Assembly: GCA_009377605.1 (NCBI GenBank)
Contig: WHTT01000034.1
Coordinates: forward strand, 1-64,000
DNA from: Luteitalea sp.
GTDB taxonomy: Bacteria > Acidobacteriota > Vicinamibacteria > Vicinamibacterales > Vicinamibacteraceae
DNA length: 64,000 bases
Direction: 5' to 3'
The notes beneath the pieces were generated by a model, which saw only the letters and a list, made by a program, of their open reading frames with translations, was not told where the DNA came from and did no database searches. Position 1 is the stretch's first letter. Every line of letters begins with the position of its first letter. Positions 25,637 to 40,331 of this stretch are shown one piece after another. A program made the translations under genes and the position numbers.

Positions 25637-27754
25637 TCAGCCGGTGAGGCGATCCGACTCGAGATCAGTCACGGCCTCGCCGACAGCCGCCCCTCGTCCC
25701 GCACCGAGCAGCAACGCAGCCAGGTAGCAGACGGCCATGATGAGCAACAAGAAGCGATAACCGGTGACGAGCGAGAGGTATTCCATCACGCCGCCCAGCA
25801 TGGCGCCCAGCAGGTTGGCACCGTAGGCGGCAGACACCGCGGGCGTGCGCTTGAGACTGGCGCCAAACAGGAGCCCGGCACAGTACAACGGGCTGAAGAC
25901 CAGGACCGCGTAGAAGATGGACTCCACCGTGCGACTCGCGAAGCCAATGGATCCAATTGGCAACAGGTAACTCACACCGATTAGGGCCAGGAGACCGGCA
26001 CCGACGAGCCACCGACGGCGCAGCTCGTACTTGGTCATCGTCAGGGTGGCCGCGACGGCCATGACGAGCACGGAGGCTATGGCGAGGGAGGCAACGACCC
26101 AGGTCGAGCCCCAGAGCAATGCGAACTGGATGATCGACTTCGTCTCGAGCAACATGAAGCCGACGCCGAGCAGGAAGAACACCCAGAACTGCGGGGAAAG
26201 GGGGGAGAGCGCGCGCCGAGCGCCGTGGCCTCCGGGATTGTCGGACCTGCGCGCCCATCGCAGCGCACCACCGACGCTGACGGCGGAGAGGCCCAACACC
26301 AGCGCCAATGCCCAGGCGTAATGCGCCGGGAGCGTCGGTGCCTGCATGTAGAGAAAGGGCCAGTCATCGCGGGCCGGAACGACGGAGCGATCGCGCGTGA
26401 GTGGGCGGCCGGGGCTCACCACGTCCGGCTGGTTGTAAGCTGCCACGCGGTCCGGCGGCGGTGGGAACACAGGGACGCGGGCCAGACCGGGTCCCGCCAT
26501 CATCACGGCAAGATAGGCATGCTCCTGATGCACGTGGACGCGCGGCGCTTCGCCAAAGGCCTGTTCCGCGGTGTTGGCCAGTCGATCGACGAGCCACTTC
26601 TCACGGAAGTAGTTGTAGATCACGAGCACGCCATCCGGCTCGAGCAATTCGCGCACGGCCCGAAACGATTCTTCGGTGAACATGTAGCTCTCGAGCCGTA
26701 CGCTCGTAAAGCTGGACTGCAGCGTCAGCGAGTCGATGAGCGCGAACACCACGAGGTCGTACTTCCGATCGGTCGTCCGCAGAAAATGCCGGGCATCGTC
26801 GGTCACGACGCGAACGCGCGGGTCTTGATATGGACGATCTGGATGGTACCAGCGGCCGAGCGCAGCAATCACCGGATCGATTTCCACGGCGTCCACATGC
26901 TTGGCGCCGTGCTTGAGCGCCGCGGCGACGTCGGTGCCGGAGCCGGCACCCAGGATGAGGACGTTCTCGAACGTGTCACCAAACACCGTGTACGGCCACT
27001 CGTAGAAGTACTCCTTGTGGGCGATCGGGGCCATCGACTGGTGAAAGATGTTGTTGACCTCCACGACCATTTCGCCGTTGTCGTCGTGTGTCGTGATCTT
27101 GTAGTACGGCGACCAGATGGTGCCCACCTGCAGCGCGACCACGAGGCCCCACGAGACGGCCAGGAGCACGGTACTGGCGATTGCCCAGGTGCGGGGCATC
27201 TCCCAGACGAACAGCAGCGCCACCACGAGGGCAACGCCGAACCACATGGCGGGAGGGAGCTGCCAGTAGGACATCGCAGCAAATGCGCCGACGCCCGCCA
27301 GGCTCGCCATGAGATTGACCAGATAGGCACGCAGGGGGGGATGTCGCTCCAGCTCGCGTCCCATGCGCTGCGCGATGCTGGCAAACAGGACAGCAACCAC
27401 GATGAACAAGAGGGGAAGGAAGTACGTGCTCTCGACGGGAACCACGCGTTCGGCGGTGCCGCTCGTAAAGTAAATGTGGCTGGAGGTGATGGGGACGGCC
27501 ACTTCGAGCCGTAGAAAGTACACCGCGCCAACGACGGCGGCCTGAATCACGGCGAAGGCCCGGAACAGGTCCCATCGTACTCGAGCCAGCAGACAGCCAA
27601 CGCCAATACCGAGAAAGCTGGCAAGCAGGATGAAGTTCGCGAAGTACGAGAGCAGGCGCACGTACGCTGGCATCCAGCGGATGAGCGCGACCTCGAGGAA
27701 CAGGACGAGGAACGAGATCAAGAAGAGGCGAAACAGAGATGGGTTGGAGGTCAA
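25637..27754 (-). CDS. Membrane-fused spermidine-synthase-like protein
   Basis: A 705-residue protein: about seven hydrophobic helices (1-220), a spermidine-synthase-like Rossmann domain (about 240-470) and a second set of about seven helices (480-700). The soluble domain has VLILGAGSGTDVAAALKHGA, VDAVEIDPVIAALG, VRVVTDDARHFLRTTDRKYD and LEPDGVLVIYN, that is, the nucleotide-binding loop and DDA motif of aminopropyltransferase-fold enzymes. Substrate residues for putrescine are not clearly present, and membrane-fused relatives are mostly uncharacterised. It ends near the sigma-factor start and is preceded by a palindromic repeat and a deoxyhypusine-synthase-like gene on the same strand, a polyamine-flavoured context. 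Confidence 0.85.
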   Translation of the reverse strand: MTSNPSLFRLFLISFLVLFLEVALIRWMPAYVRLLSYFANFILLASFLGIGVGCLLARVRWDLFRAFAVIQAAVVGAVYFLRLEVAVPITSSHIYFTSGTAERVVPVESTYFLPLLFIVVAVLFASIAQRMGRELERHPPLRAYLVNLMASLAGVGAFAAMSYWQLPPAMWFGVALVVALLFVWEMPRTWAIASTVLLAVSWGLVVALQVGTIWSPYYKITTHDDNGEMVVEVNNIFHQSMAPIAHKEYFYEWPYTVFGDTFENVLILGAGSGTDVAAALKHGAKHVDAVEIDPVIAALGRWYHPDRPYQDPRVRVVTDDARHFLRTTDRKYDLVVFALIDSLTLQSSFTSVRLESYMFTEESFRAVRELLEPDGVLVIYNYFREKWLVDRLANTAEQAFGEAPRVHVHQEHAYLAVMMAGPGLARVPVFPPPPDRVAAYNQPDVVSPGRPLTRDRSVVPARDDWPFLYMQAPTLPAHYAWALALVLGLSAVSVGGALRWARRSDNPGGHGARRALSPLSPQFWVFFLLGVGFMLLETKSIIQFALLWGSTWVVASLAIASVLVMAVAATLTMTKYELRRRWLVGAGLLALIGVSYLLPIGSIGFASRTVESIFYAVLVFSPLYCAGLLFGASLKRTPAVSAAYGANLLGAMLGGVMEYLSLVTGYRFLLLIMAVCYLAALLLGAGRGAAVGEAVTDLESDRLTG

Positions 27755-27771
27755 TCTACGACACCTTCGAG

Positions 27772-27848
27772 GTAGGGCGCGTTCGCCGAACGCGCCGTCA
27801 GACCGCCTTGGGCGAGGTCACGGCCGCCTCGGCGAGGCGGCCCTACCA
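27772..27848. repeat. Composite palindromic repeat (GGTAGGGCG ... CCCTACC)
   Basis: Outer inverted ends GGTAGGGC and GCCCTACC enclose two perfect hairpins: GGCGCGTTC/GAACGCGCC (27777-27797) and GGCCGCCTC/GAGGCGGCC (27823-27843). Each hairpin recurs alone elsewhere (1521-1621 and 18744-18769). It overlaps the stop codon of the deoxyhypusine-synthase-like gene. Confidence 0.9.
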
Positions 27849-28820
27849 TCCGAGGACCTTCGCGAAGACGAGCGGCGTCACGATCGTCGCGTCGGACTCG
27901 ATGACGAACTTGGGGGTCTCCGCGCCGAGCTTGCCCCATGTGATCTTTTCGTTGGGCACGGCGCCCGAGTACGAGCCGAAGCTCGTCGTCGAATCGCTGA
28001 TCTGACAGAAGTAGCCCCAAAGCCGCACGTCTGACAGCTTCAGGTCCTGGTGGAGCATCGGCACGACGCAAATGGGAAAGTCACCGGCAATTCCCCCTCC
28101 GATCTGGAAGAACCCAATCGAGCGCTGGCCGCTCGTCTCTCGATACCATCGTGCGAGCTCGATGAAATATTCCACACCGCTCTTGATCGTCGTGGCCTGC
28201 TTGACATGGCCACCGATGCACCGCGCGGCGTACATGTTGCCCAATGTCGAGTCCTCCCAGCCAGGGACGAAGAGCGGGAGCGCCTTTTCGGCCGCGGCGG
28301 CCATCCAGCTATTGCGCGGGTCAATCTGGTAGAGCTCCTTGAGGCGACAGCTGCGCAGCAGGTCATAGAGGAACTCGTGAGGGAACCGCCGCACGCCCGC
28401 GCGGTCCGCTTCGTCCCAGTCCGCCATGACGAACCGCTCGATGCGGCGCATCGCTTCCTCTTCGGGGATGCAGGTATCGGTCACGCGATTGAGGTGCCTG
28501 TCGTACAGCGCCTCCTCATCAGCAGGTGTGAGGTCACGATAGTTGGGAATACGTTCGTAATGATCGTGGGCCACGAGGTTGTAGAGATCCTCCTCGAGGT
28601 TGGCGCCCGTACAGCAGATCGCGTGCACCTTGTCCTGGCGAATCATTTCGGCGAGCGAGAGCCCCAGCTCGGCAGTGCTCATGGCACCGGCCAGCGTGAC
28701 AAGCATGACGCCGCCGTCTTCGAGGTGTCTCGCGTAGCCGTCGGCGGCCTCCTTGAGCGTTGCGGCGTTGAAGTGCCGATAGTGATGGTCCACGAACTGA
28801 GAAATGGGTCCAGCGCTCAA
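27843..28820 (-). CDS. Deoxyhypusine-synthase-like protein
   Basis: About 325 residues with a TTG start seven bases after AAAGGAG; a start at 28979 would be supported only by an arginine-rich, unlikely N terminus. The family fold is clear: GGVMLVTLAGAMSTAELG (NAD-binding start), AICCTGANLEEDLYNLVA, VPGWEDSTLGNMYAA, FFQIGGGIAGDF and SYSGAVPNEKITWGKL, in which Lys297 matches the catalytic lysine of deoxyhypusine synthase. Bacteria do not normally make hypusine on EF-P, and bacterial members of this family are thought to make homospermidine or related polyamines from spermidine or putrescine. The nearby spermidine-synthase-like gene and the aguAB genes 19 kb away fit a polyamine role. Confidence 0.88.
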   Translation of the reverse strand: MSAGPISQFVDHHYRHFNAATLKEAADGYARHLEDGGVMLVTLAGAMSTAELGLSLAEMIRQDKVHAICCTGANLEEDLYNLVAHDHYERIPNYRDLTPADEEALYDRHLNRVTDTCIPEEEAMRRIERFVMADWDEADRAGVRRFPHEFLYDLLRSCRLKELYQIDPRNSWMAAAAEKALPLFVPGWEDSTLGNMYAARCIGGHVKQATTIKSGVEYFIELARWYRETSGQRSIGFFQIGGGIAGDFPICVVPMLHQDLKLSDVRLWGYFCQISDSTTSFGSYSGAVPNEKITWGKLGAETPKFVIESDATIVTPLVFAKVLGW

Positions 28821-28855
28821 AGGCGGCTCCTTTCCGAACAGAAAAGTGTAGCAGA

Positions 28856-30190
28856 ATGCAACAGAAGGTCCACGTGACGACACCATCTCCCCACGATGCC
28901 TCATCGGCCGCTCCGAGCGACGCCGAGGCGCTCGGCGCGAGCGAAGTCGACGCCGGCGTGCCGGGCGGCGTCGAGGCACGCGGTTTTGCCCGCCTCGCCG
29001 CGGCGCTTGCGTCGCGGAACTTTCGGCTGTTGTGGCTCGGTGCGGCCACGTCCACCTCGGGAACCTGGATGCAGCGAGTCGCGCAGAACTGGTTGGTCCT
29101 CACACTGACCGGCTCCGCATTCTATCTGGGCCTGGACTCGTTTCTCGGCGAGGTGCCCATTCTGCTCTTCACGCTGATTGGCGGCGTCATTGCCGACCGG
29201 CACGACCGGCGCACCCTGCTCATGACGTCGCAGTGGATTCAGCTGGCCTGTGCGTTCATCCTCGCAGGCCTGGTGTTCACGGAGCGCGTCGAGGTCTGGC
29301 ACGTCCTGACGTTGTCGTTCATCACCGGCCTCGCGCAGGCGTTCGGCGGACCCGCCTACCAGTCGCTGATTCCCGCCCTGGTGCCGCGCGATCACCTGCC
29401 CAACGCGATTGCGCTGAACTCGATCCAGTTCAATCTCGCCCGCGTGTTTGGCCCGCTCATGGCCGGCGCTACGCTTGCAGCGCTGGGCATGGCCGCCTGC
29501 TTCATGCTCAACGGGATATCCTTTCTGTTCGTGCTGGCCGCGCTGGCGCTGTTACGTCTGCCACCGCATGAGGTCAAGCGCCAGCAACCGCACATTCTCG
29601 ACGATCTCCGCCGCGGCATCGCGTATGTCCGCCGGCGCCAGGCGCTGGTCTCCCTGATCGCCGTGGCGTTCCTGTCCACCTTCTTGGGCTTTCCCATGCA
29701 AACCTTGCTGCCAGTGTTCGCGCAGGAGGTGTTCCATCAGGGCGTGGGGGAGTACAGCCGAATGATGACATGCGCCGGGGCGGGCGCTGTGGCCGGCGCG
29801 CTCGTCGTGGCCTGGCTAGGCCGCTTTGCCCACATGGGACGCACACTGCTCATCTTGCTCGGGGTGTACGGTGTGCTGGTCGTGGCCTTCGCGCTGTCGC
29901 GCGAGCTGTGGGTCACCTACGTGCTGCTGTTCGCGAGCGGCTCGGCCGTGATCATCACCAGCTCGTTGCTGACCTCGCTCGCCCAACTGGTCGCGCCAGA
30001 CCACCTGCGCGGCCGGGTGATGAGCATCTTCATGGTGGCCTTTCGCGGCGGCATGCCGCTCGGCAACCTCCTCAGCGGCACCGTGGCAAGTCTTACCTCT
30101 GCCCCACTCATCCTCGCGATCAATGGGCTCGTCATCGTCGTCGTCTCGGCGTATTTCCTGACTCGTCGACAGGGCGTCGCGGAACTGTAA
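28856..30190 (+). CDS. MFS transporter (EntS/DUF894-like)
   Basis: A 444-residue, 12-helix major facilitator with an alanine-rich cytoplasmic N terminus of about 45 residues. Family marks include RNFRLLWLGAATSTSGTWMQ at the first helix, GGVIADRHDRRTLL in the loop between helices 2 and 3, and PALVPRDHLPNAIALNSIQF. This layout is that of the enterobactin-exporter-like branch, which exports siderophores, drugs or metabolites. A GTG at 28874 with AAGG upstream is a better start by ribosome-binding site. It is divergent from the deoxyhypusine-synthase-like gene with about 35-50 bases between starts, so the two could share regulation. Substrate unknown. Confidence 0.88.
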   Translation: MQQKVHVTTPSPHDASSAAPSDAEALGASEVDAGVPGGVEARGFARLAAALASRNFRLLWLGAATSTSGTWMQRVAQNWLVLTLTGSAFYLGLDSFLGEVPILLFTLIGGVIADRHDRRTLLMTSQWIQLACAFILAGLVFTERVEVWHVLTLSFITGLAQAFGGPAYQSLIPALVPRDHLPNAIALNSIQFNLARVFGPLMAGATLAALGMAACFMLNGISFLFVLAALALLRLPPHEVKRQQPHILDDLRRGIAYVRRRQALVSLIAVAFLSTFLGFPMQTLLPVFAQEVFHQGVGEYSRMMTCAGAGAVAGALVVAWLGRFAHMGRTLLILLGVYGVLVVAFALSRELWVTYVLLFASGSAVIITSSLLTSLAQLVAPDHLRGRVMSIFMVAFRGGMPLGNLLSGTVASLTSAPLILAINGLVIVVVSAYFLTRRQGVAEL

Positions 30191-30433
30191 GGGACCAAGG
30201 GATCAAGGGGTCAAGGGATCAAGGGGTTGATCGAGCCGGCGTGGCACTACCCACGGGACCTGGGCAGCGCGAACCAAGAATTCCATGCTTGCCGCGGATC
30301 ACGGACGCACCCCTTGATCCCTTGATCCCTTGGTCCCTTAGTCCCTTGATCCCTTGGTCCCTTAGTCCCTTGGTCCCTTAGTCCCTTGGTCCCTTGGTCC
30401 CTTGGTCCCTTGACCCCTTGACCCCTTGCCCCT
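30190..30433. repeat. Inverted pair of octamer arrays (GGGATCAA / CCCTTGGT type)
   Basis: The left arm (30190-30230) holds about five units of the GGGATCAA and GGGACCAA kind. The core of about 80 bp is unique. The right arm (30310-30433) holds about fifteen octamers alternating between CCCTTGAT, CCCTTGGT and CCCTTAGT. This is the longest array in the window. It fills most of the 364-bp gap between the MFS gene and the secreted protein; the rest of the gap holds a promoter and leader. Confidence 0.93.
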
Positions 30434-30440
30434 GTTTTCC

Positions 30441-30469
30441 TTGACCTCACCGAGAAGCGCCGCTACACT
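30441..30469 (+). promoter_or_regulatory. Sigma-70-like promoter for the secreted repeat protein
   Basis: TTGACC (30441-30446) and TACACT (30464-30469) are separated by 17 bases, close to the vegetative consensus. It starts directly after the octamer array. The predicted leader to the ATG at 30555 is about 80 bases and carries GAGG before the start. Confidence 0.55.
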
Positions 30470-30554
30470 CTCGGCGATCCTTCGGTGCTCCCAGCTACCG
30501 AACGAGTCGGTGCCTTGGCATCGGCGCTCCGTCATCACTGACAAGAGGTTCTCC

Positions 30555-32678
30555 ATGAAGAAGGCCTGCCTGCAAGGCGTTCGTGTGGCTGCAACTGCAA
30601 GCCTGATCGCCGTGGCGCTCGGACTGGCCGCGACGGCTCAGGCTCAGACACCCAACACGCGCTGGGTGTTCCCCGAAGGCGTCTACGATCAAGGTGGCTT
30701 CTGGCGAGAAGAGATCATCGTCACGAATCCCGGTGACAAGCCGGTGCACGCGGCGTTGACGCTCTTGACACCGACGAGCCGCTGTAACGTGGGCTCAATC
30801 GATCCGCTGGCTCCGCTGACCGATATCCCGCCGACGAGTCAGTACCGGTACGACATCAGCTTTGCATTTGTCGCCAGGTTCTGCCCGCATCTTCCGGCGT
30901 CGGGCGCCGTAGCGGTGGTTCTCGAAACGACCGGGCCGGTGGTCGCGGAACGGACAATGTTCTGGGGCGGCCGGCACATGCGGGGGCAGACGGGTGAGGT
31001 TGGGTTTTCGGGGCCGGGCGCATCGCGGTGGTATTTTGCCGAGGGAGCCGCCGTCGGGCCGTTCCGCACTTTCTTCGCCCTCGCCAACGTCGATCCCCTC
31101 CTGGACGCCGAGGTGGAGCTGAAGTACCTGCTCGAGAACGGCTCCACGCGGACGAGCCAGGTGAGGGTCCCGGCCAGCACTCGCCAAACCGTCGAGGCGC
31201 CGCCGGGCATCGGCGGCTTCGGTGCCGAGGTTCGCTCGACCAACGGCGTGCCGATCTACGCCGAGCGCGCGATGTTCTGGTCGGACTATCAGGGCGGGCA
31301 CACCTCGAAGGGCATCGCTGAGCCGAGCACGGAATGGCACCTCGCCGAGGGCGCGAACTTCGACGGCATCTTCACCACGTATCTGTTGTTCGCCAACCCG
31401 AATCCAACGCCGATCACCGTTGACGTGCGTTACCTCACCGACGACGGCGGCACGACGTCAGCGCAGTATTCGGTGCCCGCCAACGGCCGGCGCACCGTGC
31501 TGGTGGGCGCCCCTGGTCACGGCGGTCCGACCAACACGTCGTTCTCGGCGATCGCCACCGCGCCACTGGGTTTCGTGGCAGAGCGTGCGGTCTATGTGGC
31601 GGGCATGACCGAGGGCACGGCCTCTGCTGGTATTGCCGGTCCGGCCGTGCAGTGGGCGTTCGCGGATGGGGCATCCGGCGGATTCGCGGAGTATCAGCGG
31701 TTCGAGGATAACGACCGTCGTAGTTTCGATACGTATTACTTCGTCTCGAACCCTCACAACAGCGCCGCGACGGTCACCGTTCGATTCTATCGTCCGGATG
31801 GAACCGGTGTGGTCGAGTCTTACTCGGTGAAGCCGAGCTCGCGCATCGCGGTGTTGGTCACCAATCCGGCCTTGAGCAATCAGCGCTACGGTGCGGTGTT
31901 CACTGCGTCGCAGCCAGTGGTCGTGGAGCGTGCGATGTACTACAGCCGTGGCGCGCACGCAGTCGCCGGTGTCCCCTGGAGCGATCCGGTGACCGATCCG
32001 CCTGCGCCACCTGCGCCGTCGGTGACGGGCATCGTCAATCCCGCCGATGGGCAACCGCTGAACCGCTCGACCGGCGGCCCCGTTCTGCTGGTGGGAAGCA
32101 ACTTCGCCCGAGGCGCCAGCGTGTCGTTTGGCGGACAGACAAGCACCGTCCTCGAGGTGCTCAACAGCAGCGCCATGCTCGTCGAACCTCCGCGGGATGT
32201 GCAAGCGAGCGACGGCGCCGTCGACGTGGTGGTCAGTTGGCCATCGGGCCAATCGGTGACGTTGCCAGCGAGCTTCGACGTGGCACATCGCGCGCCGGAT
32301 CCACCGCCGGGTCAGTTCCTGCCGGTTCCGGACTACGCGCCGGGCGTCGTCGTGCAGGTCGCGACAGAGCGGCCGGACCTCCTCGCAACATCGTGTCAGC
32401 ATCACTACGGAGCGGCCGGCTGGGGCTTTCTAGACGCGGTGGTCGACCGGCTGCGCCAGTTCGACACGCGCTGGGGCTACAACTGCAAGCGTGGCTACTG
32501 CAGCGACCCGTCGCAGGATGTGGTCAGCTATCATCGGGGAGCCGGTCCGACCGTTGAGGGCGTCGGCGACGTCTGGGTCATCGACGTCGTGTTCTCGCAC
32601 TGCGGATCTCCGTCTCCGAACTGGCTCGTTCATGCGCATCCCGGGCCCGCGGGCTGGACGAGTCGAGGACGGTTCTAA
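30555..32678 (+). CDS. Large secreted protein: beta repeats, IPT/TIG domain and novel C-terminal domain
   Basis: A 707-residue protein with a signal peptide (1-31, ending ATAQA). Residues about 35-480 are four to five repeats of roughly 100 residues. Each runs from WxxAEG or WVFPEGVY through a VTNPGDKP or FANPNPTP turn and VPASTRQTV-type strand to VxAERAMFW; such repeats are found in uncharacterised cell-surface proteins. An IPT/TIG-like Ig domain follows (about 489-580: GIVNPADGQPLNRSTGGPVLLV, VSFGGQTSTVLEV). After a PDPPPG linker comes a C-terminal domain (587-707) with SCQH, RWGYNCKRGYC, DPSQDVV, DVWVIDV and SHCGSPSPNWLVH. That domain is shared with the convergent gene at 32837-34126. Function unknown; the product is probably extracellular. 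Confidence 0.82.
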   Translation: MKKACLQGVRVAATASLIAVALGLAATAQAQTPNTRWVFPEGVYDQGGFWREEIIVTNPGDKPVHAALTLLTPTSRCNVGSIDPLAPLTDIPPTSQYRYDISFAFVARFCPHLPASGAVAVVLETTGPVVAERTMFWGGRHMRGQTGEVGFSGPGASRWYFAEGAAVGPFRTFFALANVDPLLDAEVELKYLLENGSTRTSQVRVPASTRQTVEAPPGIGGFGAEVRSTNGVPIYAERAMFWSDYQGGHTSKGIAEPSTEWHLAEGANFDGIFTTYLLFANPNPTPITVDVRYLTDDGGTTSAQYSVPANGRRTVLVGAPGHGGPTNTSFSAIATAPLGFVAERAVYVAGMTEGTASAGIAGPAVQWAFADGASGGFAEYQRFEDNDRRSFDTYYFVSNPHNSAATVTVRFYRPDGTGVVESYSVKPSSRIAVLVTNPALSNQRYGAVFTASQPVVVERAMYYSRGAHAVAGVPWSDPVTDPPAPPAPSVTGIVNPADGQPLNRSTGGPVLLVGSNFARGASVSFGGQTSTVLEVLNSSAMLVEPPRDVQASDGAVDVVVSWPSGQSVTLPASFDVAHRAPDPPPGQFLPVPDYAPGVVVQVATERPDLLATSCQHHYGAAGWGFLDAVVDRLRQFDTRWGYNCKRGYCSDPSQDVVSYHRGAGPTVEGVGDVWVIDVVFSHCGSPSPNWLVHAHPGPAGWTSRGRF

Positions 32679-32755
32679 TCAGGATTCAGGGATCGGGAAA
32701 CAGGAATCGGCCCTTCGACTCACCTATTCAACGCTGATTTCACCGGGGCGGACGT

Positions 32756-32799
32756 CCTCCCTCGGTGATGGACCAACCTGGATCCATCATCGAGGGAGG
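32756..32799. terminator. Bidirectional terminator-like hairpin
   Basis: CCTCCCTCGGTGATGGA (32756-32772) pairs with TCCATCATCGAGGGAGG (32783-32799) at 16 of 17 positions around a 10-base loop. It lies midway between two convergent genes. No long T run follows on either strand. Confidence 0.75.
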
Positions 32800-32836
32800 G
32801 ATCTGCCGAGCTCAGCCCCCGAGGGGTCCGGATGAC

Positions 32837-34126
32837 TCAGAATCGGCCACGGCTCGTCCACCCGGCCGCACCGCCGTAGTGGTGGACCAACCAACCCGGC
32901 GACGGCGACCCGCCGCAGTGCCCGTTGATGACATCGATCACCCAGACATCTCTATTGCCCTCTACGGTTGGCCCTGAGCCACCGTGATAGGCAACGACAT
33001 CTTGTGACGGATCCCCGCAGTTGCCACGTTTGCAGTTGTAGCCCCAGCGCGTGTCGAACTGGCGCAGGCGGTCGACGACCGCATCGAGGAACAGCCAGCC
33101 AGCCGCGCCGCGCTCATGCTGGCAGGACCCGGCGAGGAGGTCCGGTCGCTCCTGAGCCACCTGCACGACGACACCAGGAGCGTAGCCTGGCACCTCCAAC
33201 CGCCCTCCAGGCGGCGGATCGGGCGCTCGCCCTCCACCGCCGCCTGGCGGCGGCTCCGGGGTGGGCGGAGGACCTGTCGTCGGCGGAGGATCTGTCGTCG
33301 GTGGTGGCTCCGGGCTCGGCGGCGGTGGCTCTGGACTCGGTGGCGGTGGCTCCGGAGCTGGCGCTGCTGCCGGTGTACGGAACGACTCGACAGGAGAGTA
33401 TCCACTCTTTGCCTTGCTGCTGATGGCTTGAACGCGCCAGAAGAGCTGGCGCTCCGGTCCAACATCGCCCATGGGCGCCAAGGTTTGCGTCCCCTCGGCT
33501 CGCGGCACCGTGAGCACCGCCTCCATCGATGCAAAATCGGCGTCCTTCGCCACCTCGAAGCGATATGACACCTGGCCGGCGGGTCCCTTCACCGCGCCAT
33601 TGTTGGCGACGAGAACGGGCGTGGTGTTCAGCGTGACCTCGCCACCCACCGGCACAGCCGGAGCTGGCGCCTCGATGGCGACCGGCTCCGCCAGCTCGAA
33701 CGACGCCGCGGCGGAGAAGCCGCCCGTGTTCGCCCCATCGAGGCCTCGCACACGCCAGTAGTAGGTCTGGTTGACCGGCAGCTCCTCCGGCACGCGATAT
33801 TGCGTCTGACCCTCCTCCCCCACCGGCAGCTCGTCGACGTCGACGATCAGCTCCGAGAACTCTGCATCCGCCGCAAGCTGCAGGTGCTGCTGCAGCGGCC
33901 GTTCACCGTTGGTGGTCGCGTTCTGGAACGCCAGCGTAATTGGCTCGCCGGCATCGACACTCTCACCGTTGGCGGGCTCGAGCGGGGCTGGTGCGGTAAT
34001 GGACACGCCGGCGATGGGACCGGCGACGTCAGGGCTGAGGGGATTTCGGCTCTTGTCGGCCTCGGTACATCCGGCGGCTGTCAGGACGCCGACCACAAGA
34101 GGGACCAGTAGGCTGTGTCTGCACAT
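32837..34126 (-). CDS. Lipoprotein: two FN3-like domains, Pro-rich linker and novel C-terminal domain
   Basis: A 429-residue protein with a lipoprotein signal (LTAAGC lipobox, Cys20). Two beta-sandwich domains follow (about 40-150 and 152-250), each with the YYWRVRGLD / LFWRVQAIS and GGFSAAASFEL / GYSPVESFRT pattern of fibronectin-type folds. A proline-rich linker (about 252-308, PPPPSPEPP-type repeats) leads to the C-terminal domain (309-429). This is about 80 percent identical by hand count to the end of the convergent secreted protein (VVVQVAxERPDLL, SCQH, RWGYNCKRG, VWVIDV, AGWTSRGRF). The layout suggests an anchored protein that holds the C-terminal module away from the membrane. Function unknown. 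Confidence 0.8.
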   Translation of the reverse strand: MCRHSLLVPLVVGVLTAAGCTEADKSRNPLSPDVAGPIAGVSITAPAPLEPANGESVDAGEPITLAFQNATTNGERPLQQHLQLAADAEFSELIVDVDELPVGEEGQTQYRVPEELPVNQTYYWRVRGLDGANTGGFSAAASFELAEPVAIEAPAPAVPVGGEVTLNTTPVLVANNGAVKGPAGQVSYRFEVAKDADFASMEAVLTVPRAEGTQTLAPMGDVGPERQLFWRVQAISSKAKSGYSPVESFRTPAAAPAPEPPPPSPEPPPPSPEPPPTTDPPPTTGPPPTPEPPPGGGGGRAPDPPPGGRLEVPGYAPGVVVQVAQERPDLLAGSCQHERGAAGWLFLDAVVDRLRQFDTRWGYNCKRGNCGDPSQDVVAYHGGSGPTVEGNRDVWVIDVINGHCGGSPSPGWLVHHYGGAAGWTSRGRF

Positions 34127-34304
34127 CGATACCTCGCCTTACAGATGAGCAGACGCACCACATGCCCCGTTTGCGGGCGTCTCCAGATGAACTATCGGCC
34201 AGCGAGGGCCACAACTTCAGTGGGCCCAGGCCATGCGAATGGCGTGTAGTGTAGCTCAACTCGCGCCGTGAGGGAAACGTGAGGGTACCAAGAAAGAGGA
34301 CGAC

Positions 34305-34922
34305 TCAGCTAGAGCCGCCGCCCCGCAGAGCGTCACGGAAGGCCTTCATTGCCTCCGATGCCGTGGGGCGGTCAAGGAAGGAACAGAGTAATGCGATGTC
34401 GAGATCTGGGAACAACGCGCTGCTATTCGTTTGCTCGTAATGGTCTTGGCGCAAGAGATGGATCTCGATTCGACCCTCCTTCCAGAACCAGACCTCACCG
34501 ATGCCGAGGCGGCGGTAGATTTCCAGCTTGTCGATGCCTCCACTAGTCCACACGACCTCGATCGCCAGGTCTGGCACTTCCTTACTCTGGTCGGTGCCAA
34601 CGATGTAGCACTCGTCTGGCTCGACGCCGCTCTGCTTGGGAACGCTCTTGAGCGTCCAGCTCCCGTACGGTGAAAAGGCGATGTCGCGCTCCAGCGCATA
34701 CACCGCGACGAGAAGGCCGATGTGTGACTTGATGCGCTCGTGGTCCTTCGATGGGCTCATGATCTCGAGCGCCCCTTCCAGATAAGAGATGCGCGGGCCT
34801 GAGGCATCGCCGCGCAGGGCGAGCTGGACCTCGTAGTGCGACCAGGGCACGCCGTAGCTGACGAGCCGCTGATCCGCGGTCGGCACGTGCTCTCCGGCGG
34901 GGATTGATGCTTGCGTGGCCAC
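34305..34922 (-). CDS. Uma2 family (DUF820) putative endonuclease
   Basis: A 205-residue protein of the Uma2 family, which has a PD-(D/E)XK nuclease-like fold. Signatures are ISYLEGALEIMSPSKDHERI, GVEPDECYIVG, VPDLAIEVVWTSGGIDKLEIY and LGIGEVWFWKEGRIEIHLL; the acidic PDLAIEVV segment carries the metal-binding and Glu residues. These genes are very abundant in cyanobacteria and some soil bacteria, and their biological role is unclear. It starts nine bases after the AlgJ-like gene on the same strand, so it may be read through from the O-acetylation operon. A second Uma2 gene is at 46887-47576. Confidence 0.85.
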   Translation of the reverse strand: MATQASIPAGEHVPTADQRLVSYGVPWSHYEVQLALRGDASGPRISYLEGALEIMSPSKDHERIKSHIGLLVAVYALERDIAFSPYGSWTLKSVPKQSGVEPDECYIVGTDQSKEVPDLAIEVVWTSGGIDKLEIYRRLGIGEVWFWKEGRIEIHLLRQDHYEQTNSSALFPDLDIALLCSFLDRPTASEAMKAFRDALRGGGSS

Positions 34923-34931
34923 GAATCTAGA

Positions 34932-36329
34932 TTACCACGCGTTCGCCCGAGCCCGCGCCTCCGGGCGATCGCCCTCGGCTCGGCGATCCAAAGGAATCAC
35001 CCTCCAGTCACCAATGGCGAGCTCGCGTGTCGCGAACTGGTAAATCACCACATGCTTGCCGGCGAGACGATCGGAGCGCGCGCCGAGCCCCCGGCGCAGC
35101 AGGGCGCGCGTCGCAAACGCCCCGTCGTCGTTCTGCACGATCCGGTCGACGGGCCGCTGCAGCTCGTAACTGAGCTGCTCCGCAAAGCCTGCGGAGTCAC
35201 CCCAGCGCATCGACGCCAACGAGTAGATGTTGGTGAAGCTATCGCCGAGCAGCAGCACATCGGCCGAGCGCGAGGGCTGCCACTTTCTGCCGTCCGGCGC
35301 GAGCACCCGACGCAGGAACACCGACTCGGGCGGATACAGCAGTTGGCCCGGCGGCAGATCGAGCATCAGCGCGATGTCGCCGACGTTCTGTACGGCGCGG
35401 CGCACCGTGCGGTAGCCAGCCGGCGGCACCGCGGGCAGTGACACGTGCCGCTTCACGAAGTCGGTCAGGAGCGTTGCCGCGAGCTGGAGCGTCTCTGGAC
35501 GCCAATGCGTGTCGGTGGAAAGGTAGGGTGCGCGCCCACCAGTGACGCGTGCATCGACAAACGCCTGCGACGGATCGAAGACCAACACCCCGGCCTCGGT
35601 GAGCTCCTCGATGAACGCGGTGTACGACGGATTCTGGAGCGGCGTTGACCAGTCGGCGTAAGCGCCAGCCAGCTTCTCGGGCTGGATGGTTGCCTTGACG
35701 GGCGTCGGCATCACGACCAACGCGATGCCACGTGCTTCCAGGTCACGCGCGAGCTGCAGGATCGCGACGCGTGGATCCGGCTGAGGAGGCGCGGTCCAGG
35801 CGTCCGCAGCGGCCACGCGCCGTTCGAGCTCCGCGGGTCTCAGAAACCCTCGTCCGGTGACGTACTCGACATCCGGCCGGTAGAACAGCCAGCCCTCGCG
35901 GCCGCGGTACACTCGTTCGTTGCCGACGCCCAGCCACCGGCTCAAGACGATCTGTGCCAGTGGGCGCAGCACTCGACCGAGCCGCGACTCGTCTTCGAGC
36001 GCGTTCTCGAACGACTCCAGTTGCGCGAGCACGGTGCGGTTCGCGGTCACGGTGCGTCCCCAGGCGCTCGCCGCCTCCGTCTGCGCCAAGGCGAGCGAGA
36101 TCTCACGCGGCAGCCCTCCCAGACGCGACCAGGCAGGCTCGCTCACATCCGTATCGGAGGCCTTCACGATGCCCTGCCATTCGAAGAGCGGCACCGCGAT
36201 GACAAACGCGACGAACAGGACAACGAGCGTGTGCACGACGGCTGGACGGACGGTGGTGTGACCGACCTCGATCCTTGCGATCTCCTCCCGCGACAACTCC
36301 GGCATCTGCGATGCGACCTGATCGACCAT
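34932..36329 (-). CDS. AlgJ/AlgX-like SGNH O-acetyltransferase
   Basis: A 465-residue protein with one N-terminal membrane helix (about 32-50, VVHTLVVLFVAFVIAVPLF) and a periplasmic SGNH-hydrolase-like domain. The conserved WLFYRPDVEYVTGRG segment (about 146) is followed by the catalytic pieces: Asp273/His275 in YLSTDTHWRPE and Ser364 in VLLLGDSFTNIYS. This is the arrangement of AlgJ and AlgX, which place acetyl groups on a secreted polysaccharide. It starts four bases after the MBOAT gene that supplies the acetyl group, so the two act as a pair. The polymer is unknown; no polymerase genes are in the window. Confidence 0.9.
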   Translation of the reverse strand: MVDQVASQMPELSREEIARIEVGHTTVRPAVVHTLVVLFVAFVIAVPLFEWQGIVKASDTDVSEPAWSRLGGLPREISLALAQTEAASAWGRTVTANRTVLAQLESFENALEDESRLGRVLRPLAQIVLSRWLGVGNERVYRGREGWLFYRPDVEYVTGRGFLRPAELERRVAAADAWTAPPQPDPRVAILQLARDLEARGIALVVMPTPVKATIQPEKLAGAYADWSTPLQNPSYTAFIEELTEAGVLVFDPSQAFVDARVTGGRAPYLSTDTHWRPETLQLAATLLTDFVKRHVSLPAVPPAGYRTVRRAVQNVGDIALMLDLPPGQLLYPPESVFLRRVLAPDGRKWQPSRSADVLLLGDSFTNIYSLASMRWGDSAGFAEQLSYELQRPVDRIVQNDDGAFATRALLRRGLGARSDRLAGKHVVIYQFATRELAIGDWRVIPLDRRAEGDRPEARARANAW

Positions 36330-36333
36330 GGAC

Positions 36334-37776
36334 CTAGAAGATGAAATAAATAAACGGATTGTATGCCTGCGTCGTGAGCACCACCGTGGAGAGCACTAAC
36401 AGCGCGACAACTGCAGCGGCCTTCGGCCAGCTCAGCGTCCGCGTCCAGTCCCAGGTCTGTGGGCAGCACCAGGTGATCACCGCCGCGAGTCCGACGGTAA
36501 GCACGTAATATGGCTGATACACGATGCCCGCCAGCAACCCAGCGCCCTCTTGAGGCGTGCCTTGTCCAACCATGTTCGCGACGTAGCGTATCGCCGCCGG
36601 TAGATCGGACGCACGAAAGAAGACCCATGTGAACAACAGGAGGACGAATGTCAGTCCCACGCGAAGCGGCGCCGGAAAGCGCGCGTAGATCGCCGCCTTT
36701 CCAAACATGCGCTCGAACGCCAGCAGCACGCCATGGAGGCCTCCCCAGATGAGGAAGTTCCACGCAGCGCCGTGCCACAAGCCGCCAAGCAACATGACGA
36801 TGAGCAGGTTGACGTACGTGCGGGCCGGACCTTGACGATTACCGCCCAGCGGGACGTACAAGTAGTCGCGCAACCAGGTCGACAGCGAGATGTGCCACCG
36901 GCGCCAGAACTCGGTGATGGATTTCGATCGATACGGCGAATCGAAGTTCTTCGGAAACACGAAGCCCAACATCAGGCCGAGGCCAATGGCCATATCGGAG
37001 TAACCGCTGAAATCGAAGTAGATTTGGAACGCGTACGCGGTCACGCCGTACCATGCCTCGAGCGGATCGAGCGAGCCGGCCTCGAACGCCAAATCGGCCA
37101 CCTTACCGCACGGATTGGCGAGGAGCACCTTCTTTGCCAGGCCCATCGAGAAGAACGCGATGCCTCGGGCAAACTTCGTCGCGGTGTGGCTGCGCGTACG
37201 GAGTTGATCGGCGACTTCCGAGAAACGGATGATTGGTCCCGCCACGAGCTGAGGGAACATCGAAACGAAGCAGGCCAAGTCGATGAAGTTCCGGATCGCC
37301 GATACCCGGCCGCGATACACGTCGATCGTGTAGCTCATCGACTGAAACGTGTAGAAGCTGATGCCGAGCGGCAGCGTCACGCGCAGGGCGGTGTCCAATC
37401 GAAGCGACGGTAAACCCATCCACTCGACGAGCACGTCGTAGCTCCCGGCGCCGAAGTTGAAGTACTTGAAGAACCCCAGGAGGCCGAGGTTGGTGCAGAG
37501 GGAGACGACGAGCGCCGCTCGCGCTTTCGAGGTACGAGGGGCGAGGGGCGAGGGCCGAAGGGGCGAGGAGCGCTCACGCTGAATCACCAGCCCGCAGAGG
37601 TAATCAACCGTCGTAGAGCCGAGGAGGAGGACGACAAAGAGCGGATTCGCCCAACCGTAGAAGACGTAGCTGAGAACGGTGAGAACGAGGTGCCTCAGGC
37701 GCCGCGGTGCCGCATAGTAGAGTGCCAGGCAAAGGGGGAGAAAGTAGAAAAGAAAGAGGTACGAGCTGAAGACCAT
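36334..37776 (-). CDS. AlgI-like MBOAT acyltransferase
   Basis: A 480-residue membrane-bound O-acyltransferase with about eleven helices. Typical AlgI marks are MVFSSYLFLFYFLPLCLALYY, LPLGISFYTFQSMSYTIDVYRG, FPQLVAGPIIRF, FQIYFDFSGYSDMAIGLGLM, FWRRWHISLSTWLRDYLYVPLG and the active-site LWHGAAWNFLIWGGLHG (His335, His348). It moves acetyl groups across the inner membrane to the AlgJ-like partner encoded four bases downstream. Residues about 69-83 (SSPLRPSPLAPRTSK) are encoded by a tandem repeat array that expands the loop after the second helix. The lipoprotein gene upstream probably belongs to the same unit. Confidence 0.93.
   Translation of the reverse strand: MVFSSYLFLFYFLPLCLALYYAAPRRLRHLVLTVLSYVFYGWANPLFVVLLLGSTTVDYLCGLVIQRERSSPLRPSPLAPRTSKARAALVVSLCTNLGLLGFFKYFNFGAGSYDVLVEWMGLPSLRLDTALRVTLPLGISFYTFQSMSYTIDVYRGRVSAIRNFIDLACFVSMFPQLVAGPIIRFSEVADQLRTRSHTATKFARGIAFFSMGLAKKVLLANPCGKVADLAFEAGSLDPLEAWYGVTAYAFQIYFDFSGYSDMAIGLGLMLGFVFPKNFDSPYRSKSITEFWRRWHISLSTWLRDYLYVPLGGNRQGPARTYVNLLIVMLLGGLWHGAAWNFLIWGGLHGVLLAFERMFGKAAIYARFPAPLRVGLTFVLLLFTWVFFRASDLPAAIRYVANMVGQGTPQEGAGLLAGIVYQPYYVLTVGLAAVITWCCPQTWDWTRTLSWPKAAAVVALLVLSTVVLTTQAYNPFIYFIF
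37526..37570. repeat. In-frame tandem repeat inside the AlgI-like gene
   Basis: About six degenerate copies of GAGGGGC (GGTACGAG, GGGCGAG, GGGCCGAAG variants) lie within the coding sequence and keep the frame. They encode an Arg/Ser/Pro-rich loop absent from typical AlgI proteins. It is the second such insertion in the window. Confidence 0.8.
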
Positions 37777-37787
37777 GCGGGAAGTCC

Positions 37788-37832
37788 GGTAGGGCGGCCC
37801 TTTAGGGCCGCCGTGGATAGGCCCGCCCTACC
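37788..37832. repeat. Palindromic repeat (GGTAGGGCGG ... CCGCCCTACC)
   Basis: Ten-base perfect inverted ends enclose an inner GGCGGCCCTTTAGGGCCGCC hairpin. It sits in the 88-bp gap between the lipoprotein gene and the AlgI-like gene. Confidence 0.88.
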
Positions 37833-37864
37833 GCCTCAATGAACAGCATTCCCCTCTATCCCTC

Positions 37865-39343
37865 CTAATTTTCCCCAGTGTCGTAGTACAGGGTGAGATC
37901 CGTGCTCTCGCTGTCGTCGATCAGTCGCTCGCCTTCGAGCTCCGGATGAGCGTCGTACGGTTCCAAGGTCAATCGATGCACGCTGCCCGGCTCCTTCCGT
38001 GCCGTCGGGAGGACCTGCACGTCGCGGATCGCCCACTGCGCCACCTGGATCTGCCGAGCGTCATAGTCTCCCTCGAGCACCTTGATAATCTCGTAGCCGT
38101 TGACAACGAGCGCGTTGCGGTACGGCGCGATTGCTTGGGGTGTGGGAATGGTTCCTGGACTCACCAGTCGTGCCTCGACGACGACGCGCCCGGCTCCAGG
38201 GCCCCGCTCCTCGGCGCCCGACGGGTCGCCTGCCGCGCCTGCGGGACCGAGAGCTCCGCTCGAGGGCACCGCGTGCGGGCTGTCGCTGCGATCCATCCAT
38301 ACATCTGGGTAGGAATCGCCGCCATCGTTGTGCGTCAGGCGGACCCACGCCTCGACCTTGGAGAAGTCGGCACTGAAGCGGCCAACGTACACCTCGGACT
38401 GCTTTCCTCCGCTGCGCACTTGGTTTGGGCCGCCGCGATTGTACGGCCCCGTCATCGTCAGGAACCGCGGATGGTTCGTCCAGCGCGGATGATACACCTC
38501 CGGGTTGCGGAAGCCCGGCGCGCTGTTGATGTTGACGGTCCACCGCTTGTCGGTCCCCACATCGACCATCGTGAGGTTGCGATGCGCGCCGTCGAAGTAC
38601 CAGAGGAGGCCACTGCCCACGTTCGCGAAATCGGGCCAGCATCCTTCACCGAGCTTCTGAAACGGGCCATTTGGCAGCTCCGCCAAGCCGATGTTCGGCC
38701 ACGGGAACTCGCCGCCAGCCATGCGCCCGTCGGTCGATAGATTGAAGGAGGTGGCCTTCGACGCCTTGTCGTTCCAAACGACCTCTCGCCTGGCCGGATC
38801 GTCGATCGGAAATCGCGTCACGGTAGCAAAGTCGTACGGCCTGGCTTCCGTATGGCCCGATCCCACGTACACCCATTCAGTGCCATCTCTTGGGTCCGGC
38901 CACACGGTGAGCGCAAATCCGCTCGCGAGCTCCTCGAAGCTCGAGCCCTCCCAGTCGCCTAGCGACACTTGCGGTCCGCCCGGAGCATTCGGCCGGCTCG
39001 ATACCACGAAGCGGTCGCCGCGCGGTGTCAGGAGCGGTTTCACATAGCTACCACGCTCGCGACGAATCACCCGCTCGCCTCGATCATCCTCCGTATCGAA
39101 GCCCATCAGGACGAGGTCGTCGCCTGCAGCGAACGGATCCTCACCGTCGTGCTGGACCCAAACGAGGCGAGTATGCGTACCGGTCAGCTCATGCACGGCC
39201 GCGGCAGGCCCCTCGCGCGTCTGGGTGGGGTTGGAGCATGCGGCCACGATCAGAACGAGCGGAACAAGCAGGATGAGCCGAGGCCTATCTGGTCCCTTCA
39301 TGCGCACCCAACGGATCATTTCACAGGCAAAGATGGCTGTCAT
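37865..39343 (-). CDS. Lipoprotein with beta-propeller-like fold, O-acetylation-cluster associated
   Basis: About 492 residues from the ATG at 39343, which follows GGAG by six bases; an ATG at 39301 would give a more usual signal length. The signal ends in a lipobox (LIVAACS). The body shows spaced strands like a TolB/PD40 propeller: LVWVQHDGEDPF, DRGERVIRRERGSYVKPLLTP, WPDFANVGSGLLWYFDG, EVYHPRWTNHPRFLTMTGPY and YVGRFSADFSKVEAWVRLT. It ends in a distinct segment (ALVVNGYEIIKVLEGDYDAR, IQVAQWAIRDVQVLP, DLTLYYDTGEN). That ending seems to recur next to AlgI/AlgJ-like genes, so it may bind or sense the acetylated polymer. This role is inferred from position only. Confidence 0.65.
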   Translation of the reverse strand: MTAIFACEMIRWVRMKGPDRPRLILLVPLVLIVAACSNPTQTREGPAAAVHELTGTHTRLVWVQHDGEDPFAAGDDLVLMGFDTEDDRGERVIRRERGSYVKPLLTPRGDRFVVSSRPNAPGGPQVSLGDWEGSSFEELASGFALTVWPDPRDGTEWVYVGSGHTEARPYDFATVTRFPIDDPARREVVWNDKASKATSFNLSTDGRMAGGEFPWPNIGLAELPNGPFQKLGEGCWPDFANVGSGLLWYFDGAHRNLTMVDVGTDKRWTVNINSAPGFRNPEVYHPRWTNHPRFLTMTGPYNRGGPNQVRSGGKQSEVYVGRFSADFSKVEAWVRLTHNDGGDSYPDVWMDRSDSPHAVPSSGALGPAGAAGDPSGAEERGPGAGRVVVEARLVSPGTIPTPQAIAPYRNALVVNGYEIIKVLEGDYDARQIQVAQWAIRDVQVLPTARKEPGSVHRLTLEPYDAHPELEGERLIDDSESTDLTLYYDTGEN

Positions 39344-39352
39344 CTTTTCTCC

Positions 39353-39517
39353 AGTGACGAGTGACGAGTGGCGAGTGACGAGGTATTCTGTGCCGGGGCC
39401 GACGCGCCGGCGGTTGATGGTCACCCGGTGGGCAAGGGCGCCGCCGTTTCATAGTCGTTCAGCCCAAGCCGAGGGTGCACCCTCACTCGTCACTCGTCAC
39501 TCGTCACTCGTCACTTC
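39353..39517. repeat. Inverted pair of heptamer arrays (GTGACGA / ACTCGTC type)
   Basis: The left arm (39353-39382) has about four GTGACGA units and the right arm (39484-39517) about five ACTCGTC units, the reverse complement. The core of about 100 bp is unique. The element takes up the whole gap between the divergent lipoprotein and phoB-like start codons. Only the lipoprotein start keeps a visible ribosome-binding site. Confidence 0.92.
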
Positions 39518-39520
39518 CTA

Positions 39521-40213
39521 ATGTCCCGTGTCCTGGTTGTAGAAGACGACGCCGATATCGCGGATCTCGTCCGGTTGTACCTCCAGCGAGCGGGCCATGA
39601 GGTGCAGTGCCTGCATTCCGGCTCTGAAGCGCTCCACCTGATGCTCCAGTCAACGCCAGATGTGGTCGTGCTCGATCGCATGTTGCCCGGTGTCGACGGC
39701 CTCGAGATCCTTCGTCTCGTGCGTACGACGCCTGAGCTCAAGGGCATCCCCATCCTGATGTTGACCGCGCGCGCAGCAGAAGCGGAGCGCATACAAGGGC
39801 TCGAGGTCGGCGCAGACGACTACGTGACGAAGCCATTCAGTGCAAAGGAGCTCGTCGCGCGCGTCGCGGCCCTTCTACGACGTACCTCGGCCGCCGCCAG
39901 CGGCGGCCCGCAGCAGCGCTACGGGCCGATCTTGCTCGACCTCGATCGACACCTGGTGACCAACGAAGGGCAGGAGGTGAGGCTCACGGCCAAGGAATTC
40001 CTGCTGCTGCAGTACTTTCTCGAGCACCGCGGGCGTCTGCTGTCGCGCGAGGTCCTGCTCACCAACGTCTGGGGATATACCTACACTGGCGGGACTCGGA
40101 CCGTAGATGTGCACATCCGGCGCCTGCGCGAGAAGCTGCCGCTGCTCGGCGAGGCCATCGAGACCGTCAAGCAGTTTGGGTACAGGCTGAGGAATCTGGA
40201 AGAACGTCCATAA
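39521..40213 (+). CDS. phoB: PhoB-like OmpR-family response regulator
   Basis: A 230-residue regulator. The receiver domain (1-115) has the acidic pair EDD near residue 9, phosphoacceptor Asp52 (VVVLDRMLPG), Thr in MLTARA and Lys in YVTKPF. The winged-helix DNA-binding domain (about 130-225) shows LTAKEFLLLQYFLEHRGRLL, LLTNVWGY, RTVDVHIRRLREKL and IETVKQFGYRL, the PhoB/OmpR pattern. A PhoR-like kinase gene follows 118 bases downstream and a TonB receptor after that. No ribosome-binding site is visible before the ATG because a repeat element abuts it. The name PhoB rests on the kinase pairing, the family pattern and the candidate pho boxes nearby. Confidence 0.82.
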   Translation: MSRVLVVEDDADIADLVRLYLQRAGHEVQCLHSGSEALHLMLQSTPDVVVLDRMLPGVDGLEILRLVRTTPELKGIPILMLTARAAEAERIQGLEVGADDYVTKPFSAKELVARVAALLRRTSAAASGGPQQRYGPILLDLDRHLVTNEGQEVRLTAKEFLLLQYFLEHRGRLLSREVLLTNVWGYTYTGGTRTVDVHIRRLREKLPLLGEAIETVKQFGYRLRNLEERP

Positions 40214-40224
40214 TGTCGCCCCAT

Positions 40225-40263
40225 AGGGCTCGTCTTGGGGCTCGTCTCGGGGCTCGTCTCGGG
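40225..40263. repeat. Tandem 12-mer array between phoB- and phoR-like genes
   Basis: Three copies of GGGCTCGTCT(C/T)G in a row. No inverted partner array was found, although CCATAGGG and GGGCCCGG flank it. The rest of the 118-bp gap shows nothing else clear. Confidence 0.7.
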
Positions 40264-40331
40264 CCCGGCCCGAGTCGCCCCGGCGTGGGCGCCCGAACGC
40301 AACCGCCGCACGCAAGGCACGGAAGCTCGTC

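What the first reader, a model, noticed from the sequence alone, without database searches (positions are those of the whole stretch)
32298..33205. Two convergent secreted proteins share a ~117-residue C-terminal domain of unknown type
Residues 587-707 of the plus-strand secreted protein and 309-429 of the minus-strand lipoprotein align almost end to end. About 95 of 117 positions are identical by hand count. Shared points are VVVQVA, RPDLL, SCQH, FLDAVVDRLRQFDTRWGYNC, KRG, DPSQDVV, VWVIDV, HCG, SPSP, WLVH and AGWTSRGRF. The N-terminal parts are unrelated: beta repeats plus an IPT domain in one, FN3-like domains plus a Pro-rich arm in the other. The module has several conserved Cys, Trp, Asp and His residues. 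This looks like a mobile, possibly catalytic or binding, extracellular domain displayed once in released and once in lipid-anchored form. I do not recognise it as a named family.
Basis: partly seen in the sequence, partly recalled or inferred. Interest (0 to 1): 0.78.

Follow-up and report, generated by a model that had tools for sequence, protein, structure and literature searches.

The report
New surface-protein head domain in acidobacteria
Two neighbouring exported proteins end in the same undescribed, probably disulfide-bonded protein module; relatives sit at the tip of many exported proteins in one order of soil bacteria, often beside genes that look like envelope-sugar builders, and in two phages, so it is probably a head that binds or acts on something at the cell surface.

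Summary
Window 32301-32675 (+) and 32840-33217 (-) encode the C-terminal ~125 residues of two exported proteins, 81% identical. Pfam, NCBIfam, PHROGs and PDB sequences give no convincing match. An AlphaFold model (pLDDT 83) has no PDB fold match but matches one uncharacterised phage protein (Foldseek E 6e-7). The family is real: 45 of 162 Vicinamibacterales genomes carry 1-6 copies, including cultured Luteitalea pratensis and Luteitalea sp. TBR-22; outside the order only one sampled genome of the phylum does. It ends proteins whose other parts are stalk domains (Ig/FN3/Big_2/DUF5719+IPT), and it occurs in two distinct phages. C31, R54, D70 and D91 are invariant (81/81), C97 nearly so (80/81); a second Cys pair occurs only as a pair (15/15). 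In 33 of 41 places the domain gene lies just upstream of a conserved methyltransferase gene, in a locus that often adds flippase-like, radical SAM and glycosyltransferase genes. Best reading: a surface head that binds, or less likely processes, an envelope glycan or glycolipid. 'Mobile' is only partly right: the window pair is old (dS about 1.5), but heads seem to have been exchanged between stalks. The convergent orientation is not conserved. Function remains inferred.

The parts
30555..32678 (+). P0001, 707-aa exported protein: signal peptide, DUF5719-type repeats, IPT-like region, C-terminal head
   Evidence: orthologue in the same genus 78.5% identical over the N-terminal part
30555..30647 (+). 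predicted signal peptide (residues 1-31, ...ATAQAQ)
   Evidence: by eye
31323..31508 (+). best-scoring stretch of the DUF5719 match (residues 257-318)
   Evidence: Pfam PF18986, 34.0 bits, cut-off 26.2
32064..32282 (+). IPT/CoaZ-like region (residues 504-576)
   Evidence: NCBIfam NF058597 19.9 bits, below its cut-off of 30; TIG found in 8 of 78 relatives
32301..32675 (+). C-terminal head domain, plus copy (P0003)
32837..34126 (-). P0002, 429-aa lipoprotein: lipobox, Ig/FN3-like domains, Pro-rich arm, C-terminal head
34067..34081 (-). lipobox TAAG|C (residues 16-20)
   Evidence: by eye
33692..33844 (-). best-scoring stretch of the Ig_Rha78A_N match (residues 95-145)
   Evidence: Pfam PF25788, 29.1 bits, cut-off 27.4
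33218..33370 (-). Pro-rich arm (about residues 253-303)
   Evidence: sequence
32840..33217 (-). C-terminal head domain, minus copy (P0004)
32289..32605 (.). arm 1 of the 317-nt inverted repeat (coding homology)
32913..33229 (.). arm 2 of the 317-nt inverted repeat (coding homology)
34932..36329 (-). neighbour: AlgX-like SGNH acetyltransferase gene; possible functional link only
   Evidence: Pfam PF16822, E 8e-27
36334..37776 (-). neighbour: MBOAT O-acyltransferase gene; possible functional link only
   Evidence: Pfam PF03062, E 1.6e-33

Best explanation
The shared module is the functional head of 'stalk and head' surface proteins of Vicinamibacterales. Sec export, and in many members lipidation, puts the protein in the envelope. 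Ig/FN3/Big_2/DUF5719+IPT domains and Pro-rich linkers act as spacers. The C-terminal, probably disulfide-closed alpha/beta head binds an envelope glycan or glycolipid, through a polar site built around invariant R54, D70 and D91 with N58, K60, Y74 and H96 (model numbering). The likely ligand is the product of the conserved locus that one member of the family usually precedes (methyltransferase, flippase-like, radical SAM, with glycosyltransferase genes nearby). Phages seem to use the same head on a putative virion-associated protein and on an exported protein encoded beside their lysozyme. Shown: the domain family, its conservation, its C-terminal position in the bacterial members, stalk variety, gene neighbourhood, phage copies. 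Inferred: surface location, glycan binding, the polar site, and which way the domain passed between host and phage.
For: Recurrent N-terminal partners are stalk-type domains only (Ig_Rha78A_N 26, fn3 19, DUF5719 9, TIG 8, Big_2 4, PKD 4 of 78), so the conserved head is the part likely to do the work. Simple pattern scan: 36 of 84 with a lipobox, 26 more with a signal-peptidase-I-like signal, 22 none, several of these cut ORFs. Invariant C31/R54/D70/D91 (81/81) and C97 (80/81); second Cys pair 15/15 co-occurring with no singletons. Purifying selection, dN/dS 0.12-0.16. Domain gene upstream of the methyltransferase in 33 of 41 places, within 4.2 kb, 29 on the same strand; both genes in 40 of 162 genomes. 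Neighbours are flippase-like TIGR00374/LPG_synthase_TM (58.4 bits, cut-off 43.2), GT4 and epimerase-like genes; AlgX-like and MBOAT beside the window pair. Two phage contigs encode it, one after a lysozyme gene.
Against: No binding or activity data. Invariant charged residues would also fit an enzyme. The window pair is not next to the methyltransferase locus, only the third copy is. Co-occurrence was not corrected for phylogeny. Surface exposure of the lipoproteins is assumed: they could face the periplasm.
Confidence: 0.42

Rival explanations
1. The head is an enzyme (hydrolase, lyase or transferase acting on cell wall or envelope glycan) presented on a spacer, using the invariant R54/D70/D91 with N58, K60, Y74 and H96.
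For: Many conserved polar residues on and beside the predicted strands; a phage copy directly follows a lysozyme gene; Ig_Rha78A_N, fn3 and PhoD_N-type domains often accompany enzymes (general knowledge).
Against: No match to any enzyme family or fold; with C31 and C97 probably bonded no catalytic Cys is left; H96 is not invariant (74/81).
Confidence: 0.28
2. The module is a C-terminal sorting or anchoring domain that routes varied cargo to the surface, like PEP-CTERM or type IX CTDs.
For: Almost always at the C-terminus after varied N-terminal parts.
Against: Many members are already lipoproteins; only 1-6 copies per genome; the N-terminal parts are spacers without evident cargo function; no sorting-domain family hit; one phage copy has 80 or more residues after the domain.
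Confidence: 0.1
3. The module is a toxin or effector head used against competitors.
For: C-terminal position after repeats, several paralogues per genome.
Against: No conserved small immunity-type gene stood out beside the domain genes in the 39 neighbourhoods examined; the recurrent partners are methyltransferase, flippase-like, glycosyltransferase and barrel-like genes.
Confidence: 0.05

Closest known systems
A0A6J5QSJ9, uncharacterised 210-aa protein of an uncultured Caudovirales phage (BFVD)
   Same: Predicted fold over 117 columns: Foldseek E 5.7e-7, probability 1.00, TM 0.71, rmsd 2.4, 24% identity
   Different: Function unknown; sequence and gene context could not be inspected here
NTF2-like protein 3duk (PDB)
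   Same: Weak profile match over the strand region, E 0.92
   Different: Not significant; no NTF2-like chain among the structure hits listed
Ig/FN3-stalk lipoproteins and DUF5719 proteins (Pfam PF25788, PF00041, PF18986)
   Same: N-terminal parts of the window proteins and relatives reach these families
   Different: These families do not contain the C-terminal head; PF18986 is itself of unknown function

Membership tests
Any Pfam, NCBIfam or PHROGs family (C-terminal head) | a match that is convincing and shared by the members | tested here: not met
   49 members scanned one by one: best E 0.067 in Pfam, 0.011 in NCBIfam, 0.0077 in PHROGs, each in 1-3 members only
DUF5719 (PF18986), N-terminal part of P0001 | score above the gathering cut-off | tested here: met
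   34.0 bits against 26.2
Ig_Rha78A_N (PF25788), N-terminal part of P0002 | score above the gathering cut-off | tested here: met
   29.1 bits against 27.4
Bacterial lipoprotein, P0002 | signal peptide with lipobox and +1 Cys | tested here: met
   VVGVLTAAG|C20 by eye; no dedicated predictor was run
NTF2-like fold | fold match to solved NTF2-like structures | tested here: inconclusive
   sequence profile E 0.92; not among the structure rows listed
Papain-like / NlpC-P60 amidase | catalytic Cys at the start of the central helix with His and a polar residue on strands | tested here: inconclusive
   C31 lies 8 residues before helix 39-49 and co-varies with C97 as a likely disulfide; no fold hit listed
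C-terminal sorting domains (PEP-CTERM, type IX CTD) | match to the curated NCBIfam sorting-domain models | tested here: not met
   no such hit for any of 49 members

The most novel reading that the evidence does not exclude
A new protein fold family, largely restricted to Vicinamibacterales and some phages, serves as the recognition (or catalytic) head of surface lipoproteins that work with an undescribed envelope glycolipid or glycan made by a conserved locus, and phages exploit the same head.
Probability: 0.3. Interest if true: 0.65.

Novelty: new variant of a known kind. Interest (0 to 1): 0.5.

Why it matters
Vicinamibacterales (acidobacteria of subdivision 6) are abundant in soil and little studied at the cell surface. 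A conserved head domain with a conserved set of gene partners, present in two cultured strains, gives a concrete handle on an uncharacterised envelope locus, and may mark phages of these hosts.

Tried and rejected
A structure prediction with 5 rows (pLDDT 58) was too poor; 7 rows around a consensus-like member gave 82.6, but the five models ranged from 82.6 down to 46, so the fold is only moderately trusted. Weak hits taken as chance: Serratia phage JS26 head protease, streptococcal phage primases, flagellin, fructose-bisphosphatase and myosin chains at Z 3.5 or less. Plasmids and GenBank phages gave no relative; a last DNA-pattern scan of viral contigs found only the phages already known. Gene conversion between the window copies: the minus head is closer to its paralogue (80.6%) than to its orthologue (69.6%), but tree support is weak (83/36), so left open. 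A DNA-level role for the 317-nt inverted repeat was rejected: it is coding homology and its orientation is not conserved. Distribution outside Acidobacteriota could not be tested well: the single scan of genome contigs found only two close relatives. A literature search on the motif string and on DUF5719 found nothing.

Full report
1. The observation. The window holds a plus-strand ORF (start 30555, 707 aa) and a minus-strand ORF (34126-32837, 429 aa) whose 3' ends are about 160 bp apart. Their last 125-126 residues are 81% identical, E 9e-63 in a search of the whole genome. The DNA-level counterpart is an inverted repeat of 317 nt at 75%. The N-terminal parts are unrelated: DUF5719 plus an IPT-like region in one, lipobox, Ig/FN3-like domains and a Pro-rich arm in the other. 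A third copy lies on another contig of the same genome (G000:C50).

2. Is it a known family? No model in Pfam, NCBIfam or PHROGs matches convincingly, for the window copies or for 49 members scanned one by one. No PDB sequence matches better than E 0.92. The PDB fold search gave nothing (best Foldseek E 4.1; best VIA Z 3.5). The viral library gave one clear match, an uncharacterised Caudovirales phage protein (E 5.7e-7, TM 0.71).

3. Distribution. A profile finds the domain in 45 of 162 genomes of the order, 1-6 copies each, and in 16 of 396 genomes spread over the phylum, all but one in the same order. Two complete genomes can be named from their exact lengths: G125 has 7,480,314 bases, as reported for strain HEG_-6_39 (PMC4882960; that this strain is Luteitalea pratensis is my own knowledge), and G325 has 6,468,984 bases, as reported for Luteitalea sp. 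TBR-22 (PMC8852301). The tool places both in the same family as the window genome; NCBI calls it Vicinamibacteraceae, order Vicinamibacterales.

4. Anatomy. Over 81 members (three outgroups left out) C31, R54, D70 and D91 are invariant; C97 80/81, N58 79, K60 78, Y74 78, R49 78, H96 74 (model numbering). C31 and C97 most likely form a disulfide. Fifteen members, including both window copies, carry a second Cys pair in the turn after strand 1 (NCKRGxC); none carries only one of the two. In the bacterial members the domain is at or near the C-terminus. dN/dS in the domain is 0.12-0.16, so the copies are under purifying selection.

5. Stalks and heads. The recurrent N-terminal partners are stalk-type domains. 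DUF5719+IPT proteins of Luteitalea share 38-39% identity over more than 500 residues with the P0001 stalk, yet their heads fall in another, well-supported clade (21 rows, 100/96), whereas the P0001 head groups with that of the neighbouring lipoprotein (4 rows, 99/95). Either the head was replaced on the same stalk, or the fusion arose twice. The event is not recent: the two window heads differ at dS 1.47.

6. The window locus. In G515 (same genus) the region is collinear with window 25692-41169, but the lipoprotein gene is inverted, so that both genes lie in tandem. The convergent arrangement is therefore not a conserved trait. Neighbours in the window include AlgX-like and MBOAT genes, a Uma2 gene and an MFS transporter.

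7. A conserved partner locus. Around the third copy and many relatives the order is: domain lipoprotein, SAM methyltransferase, flippase-like LPG_synthase_TM protein, radical SAM protein, with a second LPG_synthase_TM gene, a GT4 glycosyltransferase, an epimerase-like gene and a barrel-like exported protein close by. The methyltransferase orthologue is in 50 of 162 genomes, the domain in 45, both in 40. Where both are present the domain gene lies upstream within 4.2 kb in 33 of 41 places, 29 on the same strand; in the other 8 there is no domain gene on that contig. Of the ten methyltransferase-only genomes, eight were inspected: G206 and G512 have a divergent domain gene in the neighbourhood, G505 has the lipoprotein without a recognisable head, and three genomes of family f2 have there a lipoprotein with another C-terminal part. 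The link is strong but I did not correct for phylogeny.

8. Phages. Two distinct IMG/VR phages carry the domain. L056: a 228-aa protein whose middle part reads like a phage fibre linker (by eye only), after a 1344-aa ORF of unknown family and a PHROG head/structural gene. L057 (and its near twin L058): a signal-peptide protein right after a phage lysozyme gene. They are 46-62% identical to Vicinamibacterales copies; in the tree they fall, on long branches, among bacterial copies. Hosts were not determined.

9. Mechanism. I favour a surface-exposed head that binds an envelope glycan or glycolipid (0.42) over an enzyme (0.28); a sorting domain (0.1) or a toxin (0.05) is less likely. Shown: family, conservation, architecture, gene order, phage copies. 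Inferred: surface location, ligand, polar site.

Noticed in passing
window 30188-30446: Tandem array of an 8-bp unit (CCCTTGAT/CCCTTGGT and its reverse complement) just upstream of the plus-strand gene; what looks like the same unit also occurs at the start of contig C50 of this genome (translated as SRDRGIKG repeats in L053:2-949).
   Followed up: no
G000:C50:1-9000 (L053): Conserved locus: domain lipoprotein, SAM methyltransferase, flippase-like LPG_synthase_TM, radical SAM, GT4, epimerase-like; product unknown.
   Followed up: partly
L045:6045-6806, L053:4834-5703, L049:3139-3906, L071:4456-5316 and others: A 250-290 aa exported, barrel-like protein without any family hit lies beside the domain gene in about 17 loci; a possible partner.
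   Followed up: partly
L124:4055-4942, L128:4011-4982, L130:302-1165: In three genomes of another family of the order, the place next to the same methyltransferase is held by a lipoprotein with a different, also unnamed C-terminal part.
   Followed up: partly
L056:4683-5369, L057:4923-5663: Phage copies of the domain, one near virion genes, one after a lysozyme gene; the phage hosts are not known.
   Followed up: partly
L054:4000-4968, L080:5537-6430, L078:1484-3466: Divergent outgroup heads, at least one without the GHCG motif (L054: DPRWGMISKNPGDTQC...EDVVAYL), two of them near ordinary copies.
   Followed up: no
window 27843-28979 (-): Gene of the deoxyhypusine synthase family (Pfam DS, E 6.5e-42) in a bacterium.
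   Followed up: no
window 32837-34126 against L066:8976-10259: Single-gene inversion of the lipoprotein gene between two genomes of one genus, with flanks collinear.
   Followed up: partly
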